Source: Tigriopus japonicus
Taxonomy: Eukaryota; Arthropoda; Copepoda; Harpacticoida; Harpacticidae
Assembly (NCBI GenBank): GCA_010645155.1
Contig: CM021317.1
Location: 1,637,077 to 1,701,076, forward strand
Reading direction: 5' to 3'
Length of the DNA stretch: 64,000 nucleotides
Position 1 is the stretch's first letter; every line of letters begins with the position of its first letter. The notes beneath the pieces were generated by a model. The model was not told the origin of the DNA. It did no database searches and was given only the letters and a program-made list of their open reading frames with translations. The position numbers and the translations under genes were made by a program. Below, piece after piece: positions 5,201 through 56,800 of this stretch.

Positions 5201-8200
5201 AGGTGTTTTCAAGAAAATATTCAGTATTGAAATTGTATCAGTCAATGGGTAAAAGAGACCTCAAATGTAAATATAGGAAGTCTTGATGGCTGCTTGGATA
5301 TTTTATGTTTGTTTAACTCATTGGACACTCATGAATTAGGTACCTTAGTAGTATTTAAAATGGCAGAAACCCTTTATCCATGGATGCTGGTTTGTCTTGG
5401 AGATGAACCCTGTGAGAACTTTCAGGTCTTGCTCTTAAACAAAACTTGGAAAGGAACTGGTTTTTCTTGTTGTATTGTTGAGTAGCAATAGTTCGTCATT
5501 GCTCCTCTATTCTTTCTGAGTCACAAGCACAATTGTTTTCTTAAAATTTAGAGATCATTGGGCACTGACAAACAATTTCTTGACTAACTGATGGCATTGT
5601 ACCATTGCTTAAATTAAGGGTGTGCAAACTTATTTAGCAGTGGGCCAAATTGGCCCACTTTTTGGCGCTCGCCGCGGGCCACACCATCCAGAACGACAAA
5701 TAATTTCTAGTATAAAATTCTACAATCTTCCCTACCGTAACTACGGGCCACAGTCTATTGAAAATGACAGATCCTCTCGCGGGCCACGCGAAATAAGCCC
5801 GCGGGCCAGGGTTTGCACACCCCTGATCTAAATGATTCAAAAAGCAAAGTGTGTTCCTTATTGTGTGCAAGTTTTCATGAGCATGCTGATGTGTCTGAAG
5901 ACTGGAAGTGAATTCACATACCTTTTACACCTAACTAAGTGAGACAGTGTAATAGGGCCAATGTGAAAAACACTAGGGTTTGAAATTCTTGTTAAATTTG
6001 AAATAATTTTTGTTTGGAAAATAGCTGTTACTTCAATTCTTGATCTTCCATGATAAAGACCTACTTGTGTCCAATTGCTTCTTGGATTCCAATGAAAAGC
6101 AAAGCTCTGAATAAAAATATCACATAAGTAACTAAACACCTCAAGAAGATAATCTCTTTCAAGTGCATACCTATGACTTTTTCTAAAGTTGTGATATCAA
6201 AATGTGGTTCTGATTGTGTGCAAGTTTCATGAGCATGCTCAAGTGTCTGAAAGCTGTAAGTGATTTTTACATGTCTTTATGGAAAGTGGTATCTCTTAAC
6301 ATTAGAGGCATGAAAGGTTAAGGCAATCCAAACTAAAAAATCAGGTCTGAACTTCACATAGTGTCAAAATAAGTGTTGTGGTAAAGAATGAACGAAATTG
6401 CAGAATAGAAATTATGAATTTGATTCAAACAATGAATTTATTAGAAAATGTGTCATAAGTAGGGACGCGCAGAAAGTGCAAATAATCTTACCCTTTTAGT
6501 TATCAAAAGTTGCAAAAAAATGTGCCCAAAAGTGCAAAACAAAGTGCAGAAAAATGCTGAAAGTGCAAATAAATGTCAAAAAAGAGCAAATAAATGTCGA
6601 TAAAAGAGCAAATAAATGTCGATAAAAGAGCAAATAAATGTCAAAAAGAGCAAATAAGTGTCAAGAATGAGCATATAAATGACAAAAAAGAGCAAATAAG
6701 TGTCAAAAAAGAGCAAATAAATGTCAAAAAAGAGCAAATAACTTGCATTTGGACTTAAAACGTCATTCATGGAGTACCCACGGCTCCTAATTTAGCAGGA
6801 GAAGTCATTTACAAGTTCGAAAGACATTTGAGACTAGTTTGAGGTGAAGAGGCAATGCTGCACAAGTAAAAGAGTTCTATTTATTAGGTCACTAGCAAAA
6901 AGGATGTAAAGTCATGAAAAATAATCTTGTCAACAATCTTCTGAATTTTCATTCCTAAGGTGGTCTCGTGGATGTATGTACCTAAAATATTGTCGAAATA
7001 TATTTAGCATTTGTTTTATTTGGCTTTACAACACTCCGTTTTTGTCCTTCAAGTTGTTCAAAAATAGACATTGAAAATTGAACAGAAAAATACCCACGTG
7101 TGCCTAACAATTGGATCAAAGAAAATAGTCTTAAATGTGTTTTAAGCATGTTTTTAGTGACATTAATTCAATATTTGACCCATGGCCTAGTTACCAGAAC
7201 TCAATTTCAAACGTGGCATTCATTGTCTCATCACATCAAAACTGTTCAAAAATACTTTTGGAACTTAAAAGTAATATCTCCAAGTCAATTAAACAATGTG
7301 TACTGCTACATTGATGTATCCTTAGCTTGATGATTTTAAGTTAAAACGGCCTTTTTTTAGAAATAGCGATCTTTGTAGGCAGCAAACCTAATTCTGCAAT
7401 CTATATTGTTAGTAGATACTTCCATTACCAAAGCATGAGTTTCTTTAGGTTTGCTATTTGTTGCTTGCATGCAATGAGATTCTTTTGTCTAATCTTTAGT
7501 TTAGTAAACAGGATGTTATAGTTAAAGCCAAGATGGTGAATAAAGTGTGAGGTTTGCGTCTGAAATGCACATATTTCTTCAAGGTGCTAAGAATGGTTGA
7601 TTGCAAATGTTTTTCAACTAGTTCAAAATTTGATCTTGAAACTAAAAATTCTTTCAAAAGCCACTACATTTTCTTAACAATTTGTCAACTTTGGCCAAAA
7701 ACGTAAATAAAAAGTGCAAATAAAGGTGAAAAGTGCAAAAGTGCAGAAAAATGGGTTTATGTTACCAAAAATCTTTTTACACTATTTGCCCGTCCCTACT
7801 TATCATGTTGTAAATATCAATAGTCAATTCAAAGACTATGTACTCACAATAGTTTGAACCAATCAAGCACTTGCAACAATGTACATATGATTAATTGAGG
7901 AATGCATTTCTAGCTACCCATTAGAAAATATTCCAATACAAACTTTAAGTCAAGTTTTGTTCATTTGAAACATCTTCACATGATCATTGGTTTGAAAATC
8001 TTTTGCCAATAAGTAGACCCCACAAGTTGTTTTTACAAGTGTCCTAAACACTGACAAAATCATTAGCAAGAGTATCAACTTAAACAGAAGTAATTCTGGA
8101 GTGTCATCTACACAGTTTACAATATGATTGTATAACTTACTTTTAGACCATTTGTGCATGAATAGTTGAACCAGTCATGCACTTTTAATTCTTACATGGT

Positions 8201-41898: not shown

Positions 41899-44800
41899 TT
41901 AATGATATCCGTTGCGATTGAGTGGTTGCTTCTCCGGGGAGTCGGTGGGGCGTTTTCTCTTAAAGAAGCCGCACTGAAACAAATCAAAAGGATTACGTCG
42001 AATGTTTCACAACCAATTACTAACGATGTCACTCACTCTCCAGAGACAGAAAATGATCAGAGCGAGAAGGAGGAGACCACCCAAGGCGGCCAGTAGCCAC
42101 ACCCACCAAGGAATGGAACCCTCGGCAAGTTCACTGGGAAACACCTCTGTCGTCACTTGATGGGTCTGGAACGAAAATTTAAGGTTGAGTGAGTATGCTA
42201 CATTTGTTACGTTGTAGATATTGCTCATACTTGGTAATCCATTCGAGTAACGTCCGCTTGATGAGGAAGGCGGGTAATTCTAGTGACTAGTTTGGACGAA
42301 ATTTGAACTTTGTCCGCATAATTCTGGAAAGTTCAAGTTGTAATGAATCATTATGACCCTCACTTTATTAAGTAAGTGACACTTTACCTTTATTTGAGTC
42401 TCTGTGAAAAGACGGGCTCTGATTTTGAAAAGAACGCTGTCGTCCTTGAGAAGGGGTCCAATTGTGCAACGCATCAACGTGCAACGACCAGGAACGCACC
42501 CGTTGATCTCATTTTCGAAATCTTCATTCTCGAACTGACGCTTTACTCTAAAAAATGTGTGGATTGGTAAGATTTTAACCTCCTTCAAAAGTGTTTGCTT
42601 CTTACCGAGTTCGTTTGTTCAATCCAGCCACAAGTTGGCTTTCAAACCCAGGCTCAATGTTGCTTGGTGCTACCTTGGCCTCAACTTGGCTTAGATGAGA
42701 GCGAGCTTGGTTTTCCAGCCTTCGCTTGATCTGTTCCAATTCACTACGATCATAAGTATCCCCAGCTACAGTCTTGGACCATGAGGCCCAAGATGAGCTT
42801 TTCCTCACCATGGTTCCGTCTGGTTGCCGAATCCAACCGGTGGAGTTTGTACCATGATCACCATCTTCAATATTTCTTCCACCATAACCTGCACCTTGAC
42901 CTTGGACTTCATTGTGGACCTGATTTTGGCGGTTTAAGCGATTGATCTCTTCTTGACTGAGATCCACACCACCCTGATAGGATGATTCAGACGACCAAGC
43001 TGATGTTCTTCTCACGTAGGTGCCATTGTCCAACAGGACCCAACCTGAGTCGTTTGAACCACTCAAAGATCCACCATCAATTTGGTTGTCAATGGCATTG
43101 CCCTCACCAATATGACCTGATCTAAAGTAAGTTCCACTTTGGTCTAGGGAGCCTCGGGTATTGCCTTGACGAGCTCCTTGTGACCCTCCTTGCTGATATG
43201 TGCCACTGCCTCTGTAGGATTGCCCTCGCGAACTTCCATGGGATCTTTGGAAACCTGATTGACTTTGTCCTTGGCTCAATCCTCTGTATTCGCCTTCATT
43301 GGCAACTGCCCCAAATCTACCTGTTGGACCGCGATAACTGGTTCCAGTGCCATCCCGAGATTTCGCCTCGGCATATGTGCCTTCAACAATCGTAGGTTGC
43401 CCACCGGGATTGAATGGTCCAGTGCCGTCATATCCACTACTTCCTTCACTGTAATCGCTTCCCCCAGCAGAAAATGATTGTGAACCACCTTGGTTAAGTT
43501 GCGAACCACCAGAATTCGATTCATAGGAAGTTCTTCCACCACCAGTAACAGTATTTGATGATCCACCAACAAAAGAGGCAGCCACAGTTGATTCCTTCCA
43601 TTCCCATTGATTTTTTTCTTCTGACCACACCCATTTTCCTTGTGCTGCAGCTTCAGCTGCACCTGATGATGAAGAACCTGAGGACGAGGTTTCTGGTGAT
43701 GTTATGCCACTACTTCCAGAAACTGTTCCAGAGTTAAAGTTAGAACTGAAGGAGTTTCCTGTTTGGGACGAGCCGCTGGATCCTTGATAAGATCCTCTTG
43801 ATTGAGATCCATCTTGGTATGAACCACCAGATCCTCCACTCTGATAAGTTGAACCTTGATAGGAGCCATCCACATTGCTTTGATATCGGGTATTGTCAAC
43901 CTGATATCGTGTTTCACCCCCAGTAGCTGAGAACACGGCTCCTCCGGCCTCTTTTTCAAGTTCAGATTTTCTCATGGTCCCGTGGTAGTCACCGGGACCA
44001 CGAGCAGCATTGAAAATGGTATTGGTACTATCTCCTCCAATTTGAGAACTGGAACCTCCTCCTAGTTGGGTTTCGGATCCACTTTGACCATATGCTGAGC
44101 CATAAGAGGATCCGGATCTTTGAGAAGAGTCTCCGTAACCTGCTTGATTGTTCACATTGGATCCCCCAATGGCTCCTCTCGACGACTCGCTTGACCAAGA
44201 CGACCAATTTGATTGTGTCTTCTTATAAGACCCATCTGGTTGGAGAACCCATCCACTGTCATCAGAGCCAGAGTCTCTGGAACCCCCTCGACCTCCAATG
44301 TTTATATCATTGCCTCCTACGCCACTTCCGCTCCGGCCGTCATAAATTCTGATGTAGGTTCCATTGTCTAGTAATTTCCATCCAGAGTAGGAGACTGTTC
44401 CTCTACTTGAACCCCCTGCTGCAGATGAGGATTGGCCGACACCCCCATATGAGCCGGTTTCTTCCACTCGCTGTCCTCCACGGACTCCACTGCCTCTTGA
44501 ACTACTGTACTCGTTTTCGTACCGTCGCTCATAATCATAAGAGTTACGAGATCCCCCGGCATTCCATGTAGAGCTTCCAACAGATCCTGCACTTGTCGAA
44601 AGAATGCCTCCTTCATTGGCTGACAATTTGGTTTCTTCGGCACCTTCAGCGACGATACTGCTCCCCTCGTTGTTACCAGAATATTGAATGGTATTTCCAA
44701 ATTGAGTTCCTTGACCGTAGCCTCCACTTTGAGCTCCTGAAGTTTCCACAGAGCCTCCATACACTCCACCAGCAGCCCCAGATGCAACACTACCTCTGCC

Positions 44801-47800
44801 TGCGTTGCCACTTGATGCAGAATATTTTGACTCATATGTGTAAGAGGTTTCTCCGCCTAATCCTCCTCCTGCAGATCCATAGCTGGAACCCTGCCTTGAG
44901 CCTCCCAAATTGGAACTTGATCCCGAATATTCGTAGGAATATCCACCTGAACCTCCCGAGCTCTGACGGCCTCCTCCAGATGCAGAGTATGAAGAAGATG
45001 ACGAAGATGAATAACCACCAGCATTTCCTGCTCCCAATTTGGCTCCACTTCCACTGACATAGGACGAGCTGGAACGGCTAAAACCCGCTCCAGCAGCACC
45101 AGCTTGAGCTGCTGCGTAGCCTCGAGAACCAATGGTCTAAAATGCATGGAAACATTTTTATACGAATTTGAGACCATGCTATCTTTACTCCTAAAATCAA
45201 TTTGCTTACCTTGACGTAAAGAGGATTGATGTTGTCAATAGATTGGCATTTGGCCTTGCTCTTATCGTAGTCCACATTCAAAAGATACAAGAGGTGGTCA
45301 CCGTTGTCATTGAAGCTTGGCCATAAGATGAACACCTCAGCTTCTTGAATAGTGGATGGTCCTCGGTTCTTCACATCATAGACATGAAACACTTCTTCAC
45401 CAAGCTCATCCTCAAAGTAATATTTGTCTGGAATCTCTTGGGAGATGTTGTATTCCACTTGACCAGGTTTTGAAGTTCCAGTGACTCGCCAATCCGTCGA
45501 AACTGTCACTGGGATTCGAATGAGCCGTCGGTTATCCTTTTGAAGAGAAAACACCCGGAAATTGTAGGGTCTCATTATGAAAACACACGTCAAAAAATTG
45601 ACATTTTCTCACCTGGTTGTCAGAACCATTTTCTGGATTGGACGAGTTGACAGCCATTTCGAAGTCGTACTCATTCAAAAGTTGGTCTTGATTTTCGTCA
45701 TCCATTGGTTGAAGATAGACGTTCAGAGTCAACTGTAAAGAATGTACGTTAGAAAAAGGAAATGTGTGTCAATTGATAGGTGATCTTACTTCAGAATTTG
45801 CCGGTAAAGGATTTCCAATCTCACATTTGAGAGTTCGATTGTTCTGACTCGTTGGAGGAGAGCACAAGGGTGTCAACTCGCTCGAGTTAGTGTTAATATA
45901 ATTGATTCCACGTGGAATTTGTAAGTAATACATGGCATTGAAGGCATCTTCACCGGTGTTGGTGATCTGCGTTGTGATTTCCAGCTTCTCATCGCTTCCA
46001 ATCACATACGCTCCCATGCTAAAAGACAACCAGCCGGTCAATAATCGCGTTTGAAGACGGTTTTCTCTTTCCACTTACTGAGAGGCTTCCAATGAGAGAT
46101 TGGGTATGCAGAGATTGTCTGCACCACAGTCCTTCTGAATTGAAATACTGTCCATAGCCATCTTTTCAAATTGGCCCAAGACTGGAGTAAGGGAGCCAGA
46201 ACTTCCAAAGCCAATTTGGCTTGTCTTGAGCGAGTATCGAACTTGGGCATCCAAAGTGGTCAGTTTGTCACTGATTGGCGCAGCCGTAAGATAGACGGTG
46301 AAACTGTCTTTGAACAACTGATTCTTGCGAATATTGACAGTCTTATTCCGAGAGCTGAAGCCTTCTTGATTGAGGAAGAACATCCGCTTGGCGTGATCTT
46401 TCTTTACATCCAACATGTATTGAAGGTCCAAATCTGGATTCATGGATATGAATTCGTTAGACATAGGGATTTTTAACTGTCAATTAGGTGTTCTAGATAT
46501 TTTCTACTAGATTGAACAACCTCCCTCTGTCAAGCCTTTCTGGTGCATTGCAGGTGTTCTGGACAATGCATTGATAAATGACTTGGTTTAAGGGCAGAAG
46601 GGGAATTTTCCCTCAATTTCAACTGGCCAACAAGCCGCGCAAGAATTACTTGATGATCATTAACGAGGGGCGTTATTTTTCAAATAGGTTGGTCTGTTTC
46701 ATTTCGTTTCTGGCCTGATCACAGACTGTTAGTTTGTCACATACTTTCAAGGCTGTTCCCTGGTTTTTAATATTGAACTTTTGAAAAAGCCATCGTAATT
46801 AACAAGCCAAAAATGATTGCTAACCATCAACTTTGGCGAGCTTTCTTGTTTTTTTGCATTTGATTTAGCGCTATATATGTGTTTAAGATTCGGCAAAAAG
46901 AGTATGTCATATTTCGGATACGCATACTCTTTCAAGTGGACCCAACACTTTTTCCCCCTTTCTGTGTTCATTTTTCTTTTTAAGTTCAAGTGACTTCCTC
47001 AAATTCAACAAAAAATGACACAAAAGCATAAAAATGCCCACACTACATATTGGTCTGTCAAACTTACCAATGCTTTGCGGAACACCTTCTCCATCGTAAC
47101 GCATCGTGACCTCCACATCCACACATGGAACTCGCGTTTGTCCATCTCTAAGGGTGCATTTCTTGCGTTCCAAATCGATCTGTTTACTGGCTTTCAAAAA
47201 GATCACCTACAAAAAAATCATGTTAAAAACCATAGAGTCTGACATAAATTTGAATTCAAATGGACACATACCTTGGAATCGAGATGAACCACTGGGGCAG
47301 ATCTGAGATAAACCGCATTGCTGGAATCGTACGCTCCCACCAAGAGATCAGGGTATTTGTTCTGATCCAGATCCATACCAGCGGAAATGGACCATCCAAA
47401 GGTTCTAATTGTTGAGCTAATATCTGCTGCGTGGATGACCTTAAAGCAATAATGTCGTAATGAGCCTTTGTCTTGTAATCTTTATTCTGTTTGGATGAAC
47501 AAATACCTGTGCATATTTGCCGAGGATTCCATCTTCTGATCCCAGGAATATGTAAATGGCTCCTCTATGATCGGCTCCATCATATGGAGCACCCACAATG
47601 AGATCCTCTATTCCTTTGGGATTGGACCGAGTGATGCCATCCAAGTTTAGATTACCGGCACAAGCCACAGACAATCCAAATCTGGCCTTATGGTTTTCCC
47701 CATCCAGCGTGTCAAATTTCTTAAACTTGTGCTACAAACCAAATTAACTCTCGATAAGTTCCACATTTGGGACCCAAAATGTTTTAGTTGTACCTGAGAA

Positions 47801-50800
47801 TCTTGATAAACGACATACACCCGACCGGTCTCGTATTTTCCCATGATTTCATAGTTTGTCCACATGGGCGATCCAATGATGAGGTCATCGAGCCCATCTC
47901 CATTTAGATCTCCAGCTGCCACCGAATATCCAAAGTATGCTCCGATTTGATCTCCAGTCAGATTGTACAGATTGGTCAAATTGGAGTTGTAGATGAGAAT
48001 CTATAGAAAGGAGAACTCGGTGGATGGAGTGATTGTCCATAAGATTGGCTTTAATTGATCAAGATTGAATGTCCTACCTTGCCAGTTAAACTGGCTCCTC
48101 GAGGCATCCCTACAGCTACATCGGCATTGTCACCATCTCCATTGAACTCGCCGGTGGTGACCGAATAGCCCAGATAAGAATCGTCATCGTTGGGCGATCC
48201 TTCGCCCGTTTTATGTTGAGCAGCCAAATGGGCCAAATTCTGGGAGAACACTTGCCCTAAAGAAGAATTACCGAGATCTTTAAGCATCTGTGCCGCCAAT
48301 ATTGGAAGTCAAATGGAGAGAACCCAGTGTTTCAGGGTTAGAATTAGCTCCAATTAGGCGAAACCTCTTTAGTCAAGGATGTTGGGGATACAAAAAAATG
48401 AATAACTTCCATAGATTACATAGAGCCAAAGAACAGAAAGTGTTGCTGAAGATATGAGTGGAGTTAAGAACGAATGCCCATACCTGTTCCTGGTTTGCCG
48501 CCGCGTCTTCGGAAAATGTGTGAATCAGTGGTGTTAAGTGAAAACACTTGGCCTGTAATCAAGTGATTAGTCATCACAGAGTCGACAAGTTATTTGATTA
48601 GAACCAGGTTTTAAGACAACGCCAAAACAACCATGCTTGAGGGTGTCATTTTATTTTGCCTTGAACTCACCTTGCCAATACCAAGAACCCGGTGCTCCCA
48701 CGAACATTTGCTCCCCATTCTGAAAAAGACGGGATAACCCTTATTCTAGGGGCAATAGCCATTGTACTCGAAACCGCTCATCCTCATCAAAGCCGAAATG
48801 TAACCTACTTTCCCCCAGCCCTTTCTGAAGTTCTCATGTGTCAAGGGTTTTAGTTTGACATTTTGTATATGACTTACTTCCGCGACTGCTCCTCCAATTC
48901 CAGCTTGACAGGATCCCTGACGGTGGTAACCCCATTTTCCTGGAACGACAGGTCACAAAGTGAGTGAAAAGGGAAAATCCACTGAAATGGAACGTAAATT
49001 GGAAAACCCCAAAGACAAAAATAGTAGGATGAGACATTCAGAGGAAGGCAATCAGTACAAATAGCACAAAGGATGTGTCATGCTTTCGTGTCCAAAATAT
49101 GTTGAAGGAGGAGAAGAATGGCGAGGTTTCAAAATTCCCCCTCTGCGCGACATCGTTGACGACTGGAACGGAACGGAACATGCAAAACATCGAGAAAGTT
49201 GGACCCCCAGAAAGTATATGTAAATAGTAGACATGTATCAATATCGAAGCTACGAGATTTTCCCAGATATTGTTCACACTACATGACATGGACCACTGAC
49301 ATCGAAACAAGTAAACATTTGTCGACTTGCTTGCTTACCCACTAAAACATTTTCTCCATTGGCATTTTTCTGAACCACATCACCTGAGCGAAACAGTGAA
49401 ATCATTAATATTTTGCCACCCTTTCTTTATTAAGTACTAATATGGCTCATGTGTTTGTGTTTACAGTGAAAAGCAACGAAACGTTTTCTTTGACAAAAGG
49501 CTCAGAAATCTGAGACGCCGAAATTAAAATTACAAGAGGCTTGTTTGGAAACATCTAGACTACCACAAGAAAAGCTTACAGTGGTCACGCTGAGAATTCT
49601 GTCCCGGTGAATTGCCTTGCCATCGGGAGTAATCGCAAACAACATAGAGAATCTCACTAGAATTGTGAATGGACTCCAAGCGAGTGAATTCTGAGTTTTG
49701 AACGTCAGATATCTTAAAGCTTGAAACGTCCTTTTCTGTGCTGTTGAAATAACTGCCTGGAATTGAAGCAGAGCCAAAGATACATACATTACTTTGTCAA
49801 ATATGGATCACCCTCAGCCTGGTTTCATGGTGGGGGTGTGCAAATATGATTTGAGGTGCGATTGAATATTGCCCGAGTATTTTTCATAATTCTATCTTTT
49901 TGCTTCTCTCCTCCTTCCACATGACACATCCTATGTGTGTGTGTATCTCTTCAAGATGGCACAATGCAAAGAATGGTTTTTAGATGGTTCTGTTTAGGTA
50001 AAGATTGAATTTTAAGTCAGGTTAGTTCTAGTGATTTAGAAAGGGTCGTTTAAAAAAACTGGTCAGTTTTCATGAAAGAAAAGATGAATGAGTTGTTTAG
50101 GTTGCTTTTTACATATGGTTTTAAGGGTTTTTAATGCATTGTTAGCCATAGATTTATGCCTTCCGTTCTTGGACATTTTAGAGAGGGGGGAGACATATCG
50201 TTTTTTTCTTGGTAATACAACGAGATATGGTGTGTGCCCAATAAACAGTTTTGAACGGTCAAATATGACACTCGAAATCCATTGGAGGCGAAAACAACAA
50301 CAAAAGGATGGGCAGGGTGGAAGTTCAGCAAAAAGGAATAGGAACAAGGTCAAGGATGTCCAAGGTCAAGAGAGGATGTTTTGTTTAAGGCAGGCATTGT
50401 TTAGTCTGGATCAGTGAGGAAGAATCCATTCCGAGGGTTGATTGTTTGATGGAAGAGGATCAGTTCTGTGTGTGACGATGCGAATTTGAAGCGCCCGATT
50501 GGTCTGACTGGTTTGGGCTAGCTGGACTGACAAACTTTTTGAAAAGAGGATCACATGCAGGGATTTGAGGTCCAGGCAAAAACAAAAATCGAGGATGGGC
50601 TTTAGGAAGTGTGGAACTAAGCTAAGCAAAAAGCTTGCTCATTATCTAATCAAACATCAGCGAGACATTGGACAAATATGGTCTTCTGTTGTATCATACA
50701 ACCTCGAGAGCCTCTTTGTGAAGAATTCTAATTCAAACATCCTTTGGCATAATTGAAGGGTTTCGAATCATCTCGCTTTTGTATCTGAGGCTATTTTGTG

Positions 50801-53800
50801 AATGAGATTCTGCCTAAACCCATTGTGATTCACTTGAGCTTTTTTAAGTTTCAGAAACCAGTCACCCTGCTGATGGGTTTCAATCCTTTCAAAGATTAAC
50901 CCATTGGAAAGAAAACTTTTCATTTATCACCCTAAAGCCCAACCTTGTTTCCAACATTGAATTGAATCTACACTTGCACAAAAATAAGAAGAAGGCGGTA
51001 AGTTGCACAGCAGACACGTAATTACAACTGAGCCAAAAAGAAGCCGTAAAATGAAGCTCCCATTGTCTCAAAATGGGGTTGAACCCGATCCAAGTGACAA
51101 GATCGTTTTGGGACAGGGTGGAAGTGTTTTCATCAAACTCTTGCAAAGGTGTTCATCAAACAAAATGTATCATTTTTCGTGTGCGTCCAATCCAGAGGAG
51201 ACCAACCAAGCTGAGGAAGGGCGAGGGGAGGATCGGGATCGATCGAGCGGTGTCACGAAAGCAGCTCCGGATCCCGGATTCATCACACCCCCCTCTCACC
51301 CTTCTTCGTCTTCTTCCACGACCTCTGCCCACAACTTACTTGCGCGACAGGGAGAGTATTCGGAATAGTCGGCGAAATTGTTTTTGGCCGTGTAACACGT
51401 GCCGATGGGTTCTCGACGGGCAAAGTTATGCGAGTACCAGATATACCTTGGAGCACACGCCTAGATAGATGGAGAGAAAGGGCCGCCGTTAGGATAGCTA
51501 GGGAAGGTCTAAACTGGGATACCTGATTCAACGCAAGGCCGATGGGCGCGAACTTCCGTGAAGTTCCGCCGGGTGGTGATACACATGCCCACCGGATCCA
51601 TGCGGTTCATAAAGATATAATAGATATAACGAGGAGCACATGCCTGCAAAAGAAGAATATGAGTGTGCTTATGGGGGCTGTAAAAAACATAAATTCATCC
51701 TCTATTCCTTGTTGCGGTGGCAAAGTTTGTTTCAACATTAGAGTAATGTTACCACATTCCTGATATTCCGCTAAATTTTCAAGAGCACGTTACGGTACAT
51801 TGAAAATTTAGATGGTAAACGAACTTTCTAAGTCATTCAAGAATTCTGAAATTCTTTTTGATTTTGAAAAAAAAGACCCCAGGTATGGTGAACTTGTTTT
51901 CAAATTCATTTAAAAAATGGATTACTTCTCTGGCTAGATGCAAATAGAGGTAGCATAAAAAATGTACTTGGAATCAAATTATTTGGCAGAATACATCAAG
52001 CTTCTGCAATGTTAAGTACAATTGCAATTTCTTATTTTGAGTGTAAGTAATCAAAAGTATCTTGAGATACAACTTTATAACTCGATTGCCGTTTCGACTT
52101 TGTCCACAACCTGTCAATAACAAAAATCTGATAAAGAGAAACTACTTGAAGACTGTCCATATTTTTGTTTATCAGATTGTCCAAATGAGAGGATTAATTC
52201 CAAGAGCATTTGAGAAACCGTTTTGCACCCAGTTGCTTCGGATTTCTAATGCAAAGGTTATTCGATTTCCATGGGCGATTATTGGGCAGATTATCAAGAA
52301 AGACGAAGCTCCCCAAGAAAAGAATCAGGCATTTTGGTCATCCTTTGCACGAGCACATTTTTTCATCAAACTAATGGAACACGAGGCTTGCTCTAAATCT
52401 AAATAAACAATTCTTCGTGCACTATTTTTGAGGCGACGCCCTCTTGCCCTATTTGAAAGTGTTCAGGGTTCTTTAATGCAAGAGAACACTTAGCTCACAT
52501 TTTCCGTCCTCCGCAGAGAAAAAAAAATAAAATTATACCGCCTAATTCTTCCCAGAATGACTAAACCACAAAGTATAAAAAGTAAACCGGGAACTTTATT
52601 TGCATTTTTGGGCTGAAAAACATTCAATTGTCCTTGAAAAGTAATTTGATTACTTTTTCATCCTCAAATTCAAGGAATTTTCAATCTCAATATATTAAAA
52701 TAATGTTCAAAAAGAGGGCAACAAATTTAGAGTGAAGTTTTCATGACCTCCTTTTAAACATGAAAAATACTTCTGTACTGTCACTTAGGCAATCGGTTTT
52801 CACTATTAAGGGCAGGAGATCTCTTTCATTGAAGAGCTTTCTCCCTCTTTGATCTTCCACAGCCGTTGCATGTGAGTCAAGTAATCACCTCCTATGTAGG
52901 CATTTGACACCAAATCTGAAACACGGACTCGCTCCAAAATGTGGACATATGGGACAATTCATGCAACAAGCTTCAAAGAGTTTTTCAGATTGAGATCAAC
53001 CCCTTTTAGTTGAAGCTCTTTTGAGATGAATCAAATGACAAGATAATCATTTGTAGACGAGATCTTGTAGAAATACTTAAAAAACAGATTGACCGTTTCA
53101 GACAAAAACATGTTGAATTTCGTCGATCCAATGTCATAACAAGATGTGTTTGATGGACGTGTCAATGCAAGATAACAAAACATTTTTGAGTAGTTCCAGA
53201 ATGAGACCAACACAATTTGAAACCCAAGTCACATTCAAATGGTTGCCTTGTTTATATCCAACATGAGATTTGTGCATTTTGGAAAAGGACTTGAACTTAA
53301 GCCCTCGTTTTCCTAGTTTCAAATTTCCCTTTGATCCCCGTTTCTTAATCTTTAAAATGAACGAGATCTTTGCCCGAGATCAAATATTCGAGGAAAAACG
53401 TCCTAAAATTTGAATCTTTGACTTAATCATCGTTCATCTTTTAGTGTCCAGAAAACCCAGAGACCTTGCATTTGTTTAAAACAGTGATAAGTAGGGACGG
53501 GCAAATAGTGTAAAAAGATTTTTGGTAACATAAACCCATTTTTCTGCACTTTTGCACTTTTCACCTTTATTTGCACTTTTTATTTACGTTTTTGGCCAAA
53601 ATTGACAAATTGTTAAGAAAATGTAGTGGCTTTTGAAGGAATTTTTAGTCTCAAGATCAAATTTTGAACTAGTCGAAAAAAGCTTGCATTTGCAATCAAC
53701 CATTCTTAGCACCTTGAAGAAATGTGTGCATTTCAGACGCAAACCTCACACTTTATTCACCATCTTGGCTTTAACCAAAACATCCTGTTTACTAAACTAA

Positions 53801-56800
53801 AGATTAGACAAAAGAATCTCATTGCATGCAACCAACAAATAGCAAACCTAAAGAAGCTTATGTTATGGCAATGGAAGGATCTACAAATAATATAGATTGC
53901 AGAATTAGGTTTCCTGCCTACAAAGATCGCTATTTCTAAAAAAGGCCGTTATAAACTTAAAATCATCAGGCTAAGGATACATCATGTAGCAATACACATT
54001 GTTTAATTGACTTGGAGATATTACTTTTAAGTGCCAAAAGTATTTGAGAACAGTTTTGATGTGATGAGACAATGAATGCCACATTTGAAATTGAGTTCTG
54101 GTAATTAGGCCATGGGCCAAATATTGAAGTAATGTCACTAAAAACATGCTTAAAACACATTTATGACTATTTTCTTTGATGCAATTGTTAGGCACACGTG
54201 GGTATTTTTCTGTTCAATTTTCACTGTCTATTTTTGAACAACTTGAAGGACGAAAACGGAGTGATGTAAAGCCATATAAAACAATTGCCAAATATATTTC
54301 GACAATATTTTAGGTACATACTTCCACGAGACTACCTTAGGAATGAAAATTTCAGAAGATTGTTGACTAGAGTATTTTTCATGACTTTACATCCTTTTTG
54401 CTAGTCACCTAATTAATAGAACTCTATTACTTGTGCGGCATTGTCGCTTCACCTCAAACTAGTCTCAAATGTCTTTAGAACTTGTAAATGACTCCTCCTG
54501 CTCAATTAGGAGCCGTGGGTACTCCATGAATGACTTTTTAAGTCCAAATGCAAATTATTTGCTCTTTTTGACATTTATTTGCACTTTTTTCACATTTGTT
54601 TGCTCTTTTTTCGACATTTATTTGCCCTTTTTTGACATTTATTTGCACTTTCAACATTTTTCTGCACTTTGTTTTGCACTTTTGGGCACAATTTTTTGCA
54701 ACTTTTGGTAACTAAAAGGGTAAGATTATTTGCACTTTCTGCCCGTCCCTAGTGATAAGAATTTAATTCTTTGGGTTTGCATTTTTCTGACTTGTTTCTT
54801 ATGAGGAATAATGGCTAATTCCAGGTTGGTGAGTATTCTGGCCTCTGTTACCGAACCAGGGTATGATTTTTTATTATATTTTTGTATATAGTATAATATT
54901 GATGATTTATAAAACTTTGTTTTTATGCACTTTTGGACCCTTTTATCCGGTCTCTTGCAGCTAATTAATGAAATAAAATAATGAAAGTTACCAAAATGTA
55001 GACAAAAGACATCAGATCTCAACTTCATTGTAACGCACACGTTCCTTAAGACGGTCAGAGTGCTTTTGATGTCACAATGGAGTCCACAAAAGAATTAGAA
55101 TCCATCAATAGCTAATCCTGTTGTGCCAGTAGGTCGTACTTTATAGATAAAACTCACCAGAATTATTCCATCTTCGCCCGAGGATTGGACTAAGGATCCG
55201 AACCATTGACCTGATTTCTTCTCGTATTGCTCACCAGTCGGAGCCAACGTGTTACCTAAAATAAATGCGAGTTATTTAAAAGATTATGCTTTGAAATTCT
55301 CAGAGCACTTTGGTAAAAGAGTGAGCAATCTGATGTCGTTGCACTAAAATTGGACGTCATGGCTCAGAAACATTTTTACCTACATGGTCCTTTAACAAAC
55401 AGCTGACAAGGAGGTCGCCGTACTAATACAGACAAAAGTGTGATCCATTTTCGAACTCCTCAGCTCAATATATACTGGCCGCTTAGGAATGGAAAATTTG
55501 TGTCATACAGCTCAGAGGTTGCATATACTTTATATTCGATTGTTTGCGCTAATAGCACTGGTTTGGTAAGCACTCTAAAGGCCGCATGTTAACGCACTTA
55601 ATTCAAAAGCGAGAGTATAGCAAAATCAAGTCGAATTAGTATTCATCGAGTATATACTCTCCCTAGCTGCTGCGTTTCAAACACAGGATCCGGAGTTATC
55701 TCGAGTATATACTTGAGGCCGGTTAATCTGACTTGATTTTGGTGTGCTCTCGCTTTTGAATTAGGTGCGTTAACATGCGGCCTTAAATGTGTCAAATGTG
55801 GACCGCCAATTACAAAGTTCCGCCAATTTTGGCTGACAACAATGCAAAGAATTGGTTCATCAATCGGCTCAATCTCGTTTTTCAACGTGTACCCAAAAAA
55901 GTCTGGGTTTCTTAAGTTGAGAACTCGAAAATTTGCGTCCAAGAATTTCAGTCTAGACTCCAATAAGCGGATAATAATAGGAAAGAGTAGATTATGATAC
56001 ATATGTCAACCAAATACTAGTTTGTCCCATCGATTGGAGTCGAAATCGGTAAATAATGACTTGATCTCGGTCTTTTGTCAACTTCTGTTTCAGATGTTTG
56101 GAGATCTCGAAAAATAACGAAAGGTCGGATGTTTCATATACTCGAACGCGGTGTTTTTTTAAGCCGGAGAAGTCATTTTTTCAAATTCTGAAGACTTCTG
56201 AAACCAGTTTTGAAGTTAAAAAGTATGTCCACAAAACGATGTCAAGAAGTTTGTGTTTGCTTGCCGTAAGAGGCCGTTAACTGTTGGTTGATCAGGGATC
56301 GTCGATATTTATCAAGAATATTTTTGAACGCGTGGTAAACATTTTGAGATGTAACGGTAAATTTTCGTAAATCTTTTGATGTAATGACTCCAAATGAATT
56401 GAATTGCACCTTGTTTTTTTGGAGAAACTCGTCTTTGAATTAGGTACGTGTGGAACTTTAGCTTACCCGCCTGTGCGATTGTGTTGTACAAATCACAAGG
56501 TTATGGAGTAGTTTTTTCATGTAAATCAAAAGAAAACTTTCTCTTCGGCTTTATACATTGGGCATTTTCAATTTTATAGTCGCTCTCAGAAGTTTAGGTT
56601 CGTCATATCTTCTTTATTCCAAGTGAACGCTCTCTGGACTTGCTCCATTTTGGTCCTTAGTTTCGACGTTGTATGAATTAAAAGGTTGCAGTATTCTAGC
56701 CTTGATATTTCTAATAACTTAAACAATACCTTCATTGTGCTTTTATTAAAGTTTATTAAAATTTAAGGAAAATACGCATTAGCCTGCTTCAGAATTTCAA

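What the first reader, a model, noticed from the sequence alone, without database searches (positions are those of the whole stretch)
42606..45136. Integrin alpha chain with an 840-residue silk-like insert immediately before its furin site
A single 2.5 kb exon, in phase on both sides, places a cysteine-free Gly/Ser/Tyr/Gln-rich segment in the calf-2 loop that is short in most integrins. The segment nearly doubles the protein. It ends next to RVKR, so after cleavage it would hang as the C-terminal tail of the heavy chain, close to the membrane. An adhesive, spacer or cross-linking role (for example through tyrosine) is inference. I know of no integrin described with so large a disordered insert, but I could not search.
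Basis: partly seen in the sequence, partly recalled or inferred. Interest (0 to 1): 0.92.

Follow-up and report, generated by a model that had tools for sequence, protein, structure and literature searches.

The report
Copepod integrin tail with tryptophan hairpins
A cell-adhesion receptor, probably from a copepod, carries a very long floppy insert near the cell membrane; such inserts turn out to be common in this receptor across insects and crustaceans, but here it hides a conserved row of small tryptophan-rich hairpins that look like its working parts.

Summary
In detail: exon 45136-42606 (minus strand, 2,531 nt) puts 843 Cys-free residues into the calf-2 loop of an integrin alpha chain, directly before KRTR-VKR. 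One detail needs correcting: the exon is not a symmetric cassette (phase 0 in, 2 out); skipping it gives a stop as the eighth codon.

The gene is alpha-PS2 (inflated) by its relatives. Long Cys-free inserts at this place are routine there: 154 of 177 measured relatives have about 200 residues or more, 17 Drosophila entries 264-353, Lygus 1,107.

"Silk-like" misses the main point. Among copepod-type relatives the linkers drift, but islands are conserved: four repeats of dSGWvxLxNGTYvRKxSSWSS and one WxWS-x5-WxW motif. AlphaFold gives all five a pair of short strands in a mostly disordered chain. N-glycosylation sequons are missing from the linkers of six of eight inserts tested (6.4-11.8 expected); L. 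salmonis shows no depletion. Linker tyrosines are not conserved.

Best reading: a furin-released, membrane-proximal tail of glycosylated Trp-hairpin "stickers" on flexible spacers. Partner and function are inferred. New variant of a known kind.

The parts
42606..45136 (-). insert exon, 2,531 nt, phase 0 in / phase 2 out, 843 residues, Cys-free
45210..45536 (-). exon before the insert: N-terminal half of calf-2, ends INPLYVK
   Evidence: Pfam Integrin_A_Ig_3, positions 3-93; human alpha-V match
42388..42547 (-). exon after the insert: completes RVKR and continues calf-2 (light chain start)
   Evidence: Pfam Integrin_A_Ig_3, positions 141-176, below cut-off; alpha-V/alpha-5 match
42538..42546 (-). 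VKR of the furin motif KRTR-VKR (the R codon is split by the intron: 42607-42606 + 42547)
   Evidence: cleavage itself not tested
44624..44656 (-). island a: IVAEGAEETKL (no predicted order)
   Evidence: in 19 of 30 sequences of the copepod set
44339..44389 (-). island b, hairpin repeat 1 YSGWKLLDNGTYIRIYD with NGT sequon at the turn
   Evidence: 21 of 30 by regex; 10-residue block pLDDT 86 and 68; HMM 34.3 bits
44183..44260 (-). island c, hairpin repeat 2 DSGWVLQPDGSYKKTQSNWSSWSSES, WSSWS motif
   Evidence: block pLDDT 64 and 70; HMM 31.4 bits
43880..44023 (-). island d: GPGDYHGTMRKSELEKEAGG..ETRYQVDNTRYQ, short predicted helix
   Evidence: GPG(D/N)YHG in 26 of 30; helix 390-396
43592..43639 (-). 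island e: GKWVWSEEKNQWEWKE, tryptophan-zipper-like hairpin
   Evidence: 29 of 30 by regex; G500, W502, W504, S505, W511, W513 invariant in 29 aligned sequences; block pLDDT 95 and 75
42983..43051 (-). island f, hairpin repeat 3 DSGWVLLDNGTYVRRTSAWSSES
   Evidence: block pLDDT 53 and 85; HMM 44.0 bits
42773..42853 (-). island g, hairpin repeat 4 GTNSTGWIRQPDGTMVRKSSSWASWSK
   Evidence: block pLDDT 63 and 81; HMM 43.8 bits
42671..42748 (-). predicted helix shortly before the furin motif (sequence weakly conserved, 0.26)
   Evidence: H797-821, block pLDDT 64, 84, 71; identity
42641..42667 (-). island h: PSNIEPGFE (no predicted order)
   Evidence: [NS][IV]EPGFE in 24 of 30
41899..51460 (-). alpha-PS2 integrin gene, 19 exons of the model (5' end incomplete)
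   Evidence: FG-GAP and Ig domains; relatives

Best explanation
This is the alpha-PS2 (inflated) integrin subunit of an arthropod, most likely a copepod. The calf-2 loop before the furin site, short in vertebrate alpha-V and long in many insects, has here become an 843-residue extracellular 'beads on a string' tail: four copies of a Trp-containing beta-hairpin plus one WxW/WxW (tryptophan-zipper-like) hairpin, on freely varying linkers, with a predicted helix just before the cleavage site. After furin cleavage the tail would hang from the C-terminus of the heavy chain at the membrane-proximal leg. Most likely the aromatic, N-glycosylated hairpins are stickers and the linkers are spacers: the tail makes multivalent weak contacts (between neighbouring integrins, or with matrix or glycans at attachment sites) and holds distance at the membrane. 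Shown: gene family, position, exon phases, conservation, sequon placement. Predicted: the hairpins. Inferred: cleavage, glycosylation, and the sticker-spacer function.
For: Held-out conservation: in residues 1-479, over 21 relatives not used to define the islands and fetched by a search with residues 480-843 only, islands a-d have 0.59 identity against 0.12 in linkers (some of the 21, e.g. P0128 and P0137, are close to P0003, which was used). Hairpin HMM built without the window finds four copies at 31.4-44.0 bits; best of 200 shuffles 5.9. The zipper-like motif is in 29 of 30 sequences. AlphaFold with 8 and 29 sequences gives each of these five places a pair of short strands. All 5 sequons of the window insert lie in or within six residues of hairpins and 0 in linkers, against 9.4 expected (0 of 1000 shuffles); also 0 in the linkers of P0001-P0005 (0 of 1000 each); without any masking the window has 5 against 11.2 expected (996 of 1000 shuffles reach 5). 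0 of 10 differences to P0121 fall in the 177 island residues (weak, about 0.085 by chance, my arithmetic). Two relatives carry transcript-type labels (P0005, P0006) and have the insert between the calf-2 anchors.
Against: No binding, cleavage or glycosylation data exist here. AlphaFold may favour WxW hairpins because similar designed peptides are solved (recalled); several block pLDDT values are only 53-70. L. salmonis keeps only hairpins b and e of the five, and its linkers are not sequon-poor (7 against 6.9 expected, 615 of 1000 shuffles at or below); P0006 has one linker sequon (5.8 expected, 7 of 1000). One L. salmonis gene model (P0032) lacks both of its hairpins, so they may be dispensable or spliced there. 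Island a, b, d or h is missing by regex from 11, 9, 4 and 6 of 30 sequences, some of them fragments. The copepod repeat is not found in 169 non-copepod sequences, so it is no general alpha-PS2 device. The hairpin mask used for the sequon count contains [DN]G[TS] itself; shuffles ignore local order; the copepods are related; only 8 of 30 sequences were tested for sequons.
Confidence: 0.42

Rival explanations
1. Pure entropic spacer: the tail only fills space and sets distance at the membrane; sequence content is irrelevant apart from being soluble and uncleaved.
For: Most of the chain is predicted disordered (689 of 843 residues pLDDT <50); length varies widely between arthropods (25 to 1,107 residues).
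Against: Islands with fixed Trp in recurring order across the copepod set are not needed for a spacer.
Confidence: 0.22
2. Relaxed loop: the position tolerates insertions, low-complexity sequence grows by slippage, and the tail has no role.
For: Loop position lies between the two aligned halves of calf-2; linkers have 0.12 identity; inserts differ between groups.
Against: Conserved islands on held-out relatives, missing sequons in linkers of six of eight inserts, Cys absent in 147 of 154 long inserts, an open frame of 843 codons.
Confidence: 0.12
3. Glycan or chitin binding by exposed aromatic hairpins, comparable in principle to aromatic cell-wall-binding repeats.
For: GW..(D/N)GTy repeats with aromatics, predicted hairpins; resemblance to choline/glucan-binding repeats is recalled only.
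Against: No Pfam match of the insert at E<=1.
Confidence: 0.12
4. Silk-like adhesive or tyrosine-cross-linked tail.
For: G/S-rich composition with 5.4% Tyr.
Against: Linker Tyr identity 0.09, Tyr 1.4% in P0006 and Gly 2.6% in L. salmonis, no tandem array listed.
Confidence: 0.05
5. Gene-model artefact: the ORF is not part of the mature mRNA.
For: No transcript of this species was available; exons were chosen by hand; the 5' end of the gene is incomplete.
Against: Skipping frameshifts to a stop; relatives, including two with transcript-type labels, carry the insert in frame.
Confidence: 0.03

Closest known systems
Insect integrin alpha-PS2 (inflated), e.g. Drosophila erecta P0165, Lygus hesperus P0103, Halyomorpha halys P0026
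   Same: Same subunit by similarity; long, mostly Cys-free, low-complexity insert at the same calf-2 position before a basic motif.
   Different: Shorter in Drosophila (264-353 in 17 entries); the copepod hairpin HMM does not match. Hemiptera and thrips have their own W..DG motif (11 of 87 non-copepod inserts of >=200 residues, shuffles mean 0.26, max 2; pattern written after seeing the sequences).
Lepeophtheirus salmonis integrin alpha-PS2-like isoform X3 (P0007)
   Same: Insert of 378 residues starting TIGSR, ending RVRR; keeps hairpin b and the zipper-like island e.
   Different: Linkers N/K-rich; GPGDYHG of island d and the other three hairpin repeats not found; linker sequons not depleted.
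Human integrin alpha-V / alpha-5 / alpha-IIb
   Same: Same domains; calf-2 halves on both sides of the insert align.
   Different: 35 residues lie between the aligned halves in alpha-V (834 to 870) where the window has 856.
Tryptophan-zipper peptides (designed; recalled, no call)
   Same: Two strands with WxW facing WxW; island e is WVWS-EEKNQ-WEW, predicted as two strands at block pLDDT 95 and 75.
   Different: Natural, conserved, within an integrin; longer connection; best PDB chain of 20+ residues by sequence is at E=1.5 (shorter peptides are not in that library).

Membership tests
Integrin alpha, PS2/alpha-V type | FG-GAP beta-propeller | tested here: met
   PF01839 7.3e-16 and 9.4e-08 in two exons
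Integrin alpha, PS2/alpha-V type | thigh, calf-1, calf-2 Ig-like domains | tested here: met
   PF08441 and PF20806, PF20805; the right half of calf-2 alone is below cut-off (19.3 of 23.6 bits)
Integrin alpha, PS2/alpha-V type | transmembrane helix and GFFKR tail | tested here: met
   alignment to alpha-5 and alpha-V through GFFKR
Integrin alpha, PS2/alpha-V type | furin cleavage into heavy and light chain | not testable with these tools
   motif KRTRVKR present; cleavage is inferred
Integrin alpha, PS2/alpha-V type | closest relatives named alpha-PS2/inflated | tested here: met
   most informative names among the best 120 of 1,972 hits; others read ITGA8, vitronectin receptor alpha, hypothetical or unnamed; no tree was built
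Silk / fibroin-like protein | tandem repeat units with conserved composition | tested here: not met
   no array listed in the exon; composition not conserved
Tryptophan-zipper hairpin | WxW-turn-WxW folding as a beta-hairpin | tested here: inconclusive
   motif in 29 of 30 sequences, two predicted strands; no experiment
C-mannosylated WxxW proteins | WxxW motif | tested here: inconclusive
   2 WxxW (WSSWS, WASWS) against 0.22 expected, reached by 20 of 1000 shuffles; modification and enzyme not tested; the WxxW rule is recalled
Known Pfam domain in the insert | any curated match | tested here: not met
   0 families at E<=1

The most novel reading that the evidence does not exclude
Copepod alpha-PS2 integrins carry a new kind of receptor part: an ordered series of N-glycosylated Trp beta-hairpins, including a natural tryptophan zipper, strung on sequon-purged disordered linkers and hung from the cleaved heavy chain next to the membrane, working as a multivalent sticker-and-spacer tether. 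Hemipteran and thysanopteran alpha-PS2 tails, with NTTW and W..DGvvR.GSS islands, would be a parallel or ancient version of the same device.
Probability: 0.3. Interest if true: 0.75.

Novelty: new variant of a known kind. Interest (0 to 1): 0.55.

Why it matters
alpha-PS2/beta-PS is a main muscle-attachment integrin of arthropods (recalled). Its calf-2 tail is long in most of the relatives measured, yet no title or abstract start in my search listings pointed to work on it. The result gives the tail candidate working parts: five small hairpins and a glycosylation pattern that can be removed or mutated. It would open the question whether integrins can carry a built-in adhesive or spacing layer at the membrane-proximal leg, with Drosophila (264-353 residues) as a ready test system for the shorter version.

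Tried and rejected
Rejected: (1) symmetric cassette exon, because 2,531 mod 3 = 2. (2) First gene model with an acceptor at 46476, which broke the frame; a two-base placeholder was used, and the acceptor at 46433 restores it. The query therefore held an X and 15 residues more than the final model at that junction. (3) Silk/Tyr cross-link as main role. (4) Homology of the copepod hairpin to insect motifs: the HMM hit only P0008 (L. salmonis, put by mistake among the 108 non-copepod inserts) above 3 bits, while shuffles of that set reached up to 7.5; the 169 non-copepod proteins reach 2.1 bits at most. The W..DG likeness to Hemiptera and thrips stays a lead. (5) Known domain or solved relative of the insert: no Pfam match at E<=1, no PDB chain at E<=10; island e alone best E 1.5.

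Led nowhere: ten paper searches. Nine concerned the insert, alpha-PS2 or copepod integrins, one tryptophan zippers. One search found no paper holding both 'integrin alpha-PS2' and 'copepod'. For the others I saw listings and abstract starts only, none of which pointed to such an insert; the papers may still mention it. Of one paper, PMC10379305, I saw 12 passages, which do not mention it. The library misses most subscription papers, so this is no proof of absence from print. The weak SCNM1_acidic match to P0122 and P0130 is below its cut-off.

Limits: the 178 alpha-PS2 relatives are the listed hits of two searches (best 120 of 1,972; best 120 of 1,572; overlapping; P0063 not measurable); they are biased towards near relatives, limited to 0.55-1.75 times query length, and include several models of one species. 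Insert lengths are anchor to anchor and can include up to about 55 residues after the cleavage motif. Islands a-h were defined by eye on 8 sequences, the helix after AlphaFold, hence the held-out test. The HMMs were built from regex matches. P0008 and P0032 (same species as P0007) and P0121 (near-identical to the window) were left out of the 30-sequence copepod set; P0141 also out of alignment A2. Most members of that set carry no species name; 'copepod' is inferred from likeness to each other and to L. salmonis.
Full report
OBSERVATION. The minus-strand ORF 45136..42602 is 844 aa stop to stop, the longest of 73 listed ORFs of at least 90 aa in the window, the next being 368. The exon is 45136-42606 with AG and GT borders, 2,531 nt; it holds no Cys, and is G 20.5%, S 20.1%, A 6.5%, Q 6.2%, Y 5.4%. 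The exon before ends INPLYVK; the exon after completes KRTR-VKRQF. A hand-chosen 19-exon model is open with GT-AG introns and gives 1,760 residues: 765, insert 843, RVKR, 148. Two more 5' exons match relatives at 61044-60919 and 55256-55158; the signal peptide was not located. The exon enters in phase 0 and leaves in phase 2, so a transcript without it reads NPLYVK-SKASVRE-stop. It is therefore not a plain cassette exon.

WHAT GENE. FG-GAP and all three Ig-like integrin domains are present. The calf-2 profile matches positions 3-93 before and 141-176 after the insert, the second half below its cut-off. Both sides align to human alpha-V, alpha-5 and alpha-IIb; in alpha-V 35 residues separate the two aligned halves where the window has 856. 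A search of 5.8 billion proteins gave 1,972 relatives; among the best 120, most informative names are alpha-PS2 or inflated, and the nearest with a species name are Lepeophtheirus salmonis, a copepod. That the window is from a copepod is inferred from this. No tree was built.

NOT UNIQUE. Insert length between calf-2 anchors could be measured in 177 of 178 relatives (119 of 120): 154 have at least 200 residues, 108 at least 400, 14 at least 700; 147 of the 154 hold no Cys. Seventeen Drosophila entries have 264-353, Halyomorpha 874, Lygus 1,107. Short ones: Daphnia carinata 172 and D. pulex 25, Penaeus japonicus 128, Amphibalanus 27, two spiders and a scorpion 30-70. Lengths are anchor to anchor, and the sample is the top of two hit lists, not a census.

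CONSERVED ISLANDS. An alignment of eight inserts shows islands in drifting linkers: a VA(D/E)GAEET; b GW+LL.NGTYIR(I/V)YD; c GW..QPDGTY.RKQSSWSSWS; d GPGDYHGT..SELE; e GKWVWS.....WEW; f DSGWV.L.NGT; g NSTGW...DGTMV+KSSSWASWS; h N(I/V)EPGFE. In a set of 30 sequences (the window and 29 relatives; copepods by inference), regexes find a in 19, b in 21, d in 26, e in 29, h in 24 (several are fragments). In 29 aligned sequences G500, W502, W504, S505, W511 and W513 are invariant. Mean identity to the window is 0.53 in 203 island residues against 0.12 in linkers (islands chosen partly on these data; f and the helix are low, 0.27 and 0.26). On 21 relatives not used to define the islands and fetched by a search with residues 480-843 only, islands a-d in residues 1-479 have 0.59 (n=102) against 0.12 in linkers (n=377); a few of the 21 are close to P0003, which was used. 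A hairpin HMM built without the window scores the window's four copies 31.4-44.0 bits; the best of 200 shuffles is 5.9, and 169 non-copepod alpha-PS2 proteins reach 2.1 at most. P0121, 99% identical from another source, differs at 10 of 810 sites, none in the 177 island residues; by chance this would happen about 8% of the time.

STRUCTURE. AlphaFold with 8 sequences (mean pLDDT 41.0, pTM 0.24) and with 29 (45.8, 0.31) leaves 711 and 689 of 843 residues below 50. Pairs of short strands, read here as hairpins, appear at 253-263 (10-residue block means 86, 68), 296-306 (64, 70), 500-515 (95, 75), 699-709 (53, 85), 768-778 (63, 81), and helices at 390-396, 728-736 and 797-821 (64, 84, 71 for the last). 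Islands a and h have no predicted order. The coordinates of the model were not inspected. Island e is like the designed tryptophan zippers (recalled); the best PDB chain of 20 or more residues by sequence is at E=1.5. The predictions could lean on such peptides in the training set.

SEQUONS. N-x-S/T sequons in the window insert: 5 (N258, N310, N695, N704, N764), against 11.2 expected by shuffling the whole insert (996 of 1000 shuffles reach 5). With hairpins and six residues before them masked, linkers hold 0 in the window and in P0001-P0005, against 6.4-11.8 expected (0 of 1000 shuffles each); P0006 has 1 against 5.8 (7 of 1000); L. salmonis P0007 has 7 against 6.9, no depletion (615 of 1000). 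These 8 of the 30 sequences were tested. The mask regex contains [DN]G[TS], so sequons at turns are masked by construction; the shortage in linkers and in the whole window insert is not. The NGT turns of b and f are sequons; c and g have DGT or DGS at the turn; the choice tends to follow hairpin position, with exceptions (P0122 and P0123 have no DGT copy before island e). Of eight non-copepod inserts one (P0065, Chrysoperla) is clearly depleted (0 of 300 shuffles); in four of the eight (P0026, P0065, P0072, P0103) sequons of the form NTTW or NTSW stand beside a Trp. The copepods are related and the shuffles ignore local order, so I treat this as strong but not proof.

AGAINST SILK. No tandem array is listed in the exon; Gly is 2.6% in L. 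salmonis and Tyr 1.4% in P0006; linker Tyr identity 0.09.

MECHANISM. Shown by sequence: gene family, position, phases, islands, sequon placing. Predicted: hairpins. Inferred: furin cleavage, a free C-terminal tail on the heavy chain, glycosylation, and function. I favour a sticker-and-spacer tether at 0.42, over a pure spacer (0.22), glycan binding by the hairpins (0.12), a relaxed loop (0.12), a cross-linked adhesive (0.05) and an artefact (0.03). One L. salmonis model, P0032, lacks both its hairpins; whether by splicing or misprediction I cannot tell.

LITERATURE. Nine searches on the insert, alpha-PS2 or copepod integrins and one on tryptophan zippers: no listed title or abstract start pointed to this insert, and one search found no paper with both of its terms. 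Only 12 passages of PMC10379305 were read. The library misses most subscription papers, among them probably the early Drosophila ones.

VERDICT. A real and striking insert, but of a kind common in arthropod alpha-PS2. What appears new is the conserved hairpin array with its sequon pattern.

Noticed in passing
51643-51523 and 51460-51340 (-): Two tandem 121-nt exons with AG/GT borders, both encoding ACAPRY.. (propeller); 121 is not a multiple of 3, so they look mutually exclusive. Relatives match the second better.
   Followed up: partly
alpha-PS2 inserts of Hemiptera and thrips (P0013, P0014, P0021, P0026, P0029, P0061, P0069, P0072, P0080, P0103; P0066 unnamed): Own Trp motif W....(D/N)G.(V/I)..GS in 11 of 87 inserts of >=200 residues (shuffles mean 0.26, max 2), and WNS..GGxP in 7 of 87 (mean 0.05, max 1); patterns were written after seeing the sequences.
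   Followed up: partly
P0003-P0005, P0129, P0130, P0133, P0135-P0137: Island d (GPG(D/N)YHG) is present twice in these sequences, so islands can duplicate.
   Followed up: no
34366-34001 and 27469-27122 (-): Two parts of a forkhead domain (profile 5-48 and 46-83), a FOX gene.
   Followed up: no
9349-8912 and 3056-2748 (-): Exons matching inosine-uridine nucleoside hydrolase.
   Followed up: no
21521-20641 (-): Transposase-like remnant in two ORFs, one with a weak HTH_23 match below cut-off; mariner-like by eye only.
   Followed up: no
6504-6741 and 54555-54698: 21-base tandem arrays that look, by eye, like reverse complements of each other, perhaps two copies of one repeat element.
   Followed up: no
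12181-11867 (-): ORF with HELAHMFGCTHNEE, metalloprotease-like by eye; no Pfam match at 0.001.
   Followed up: no
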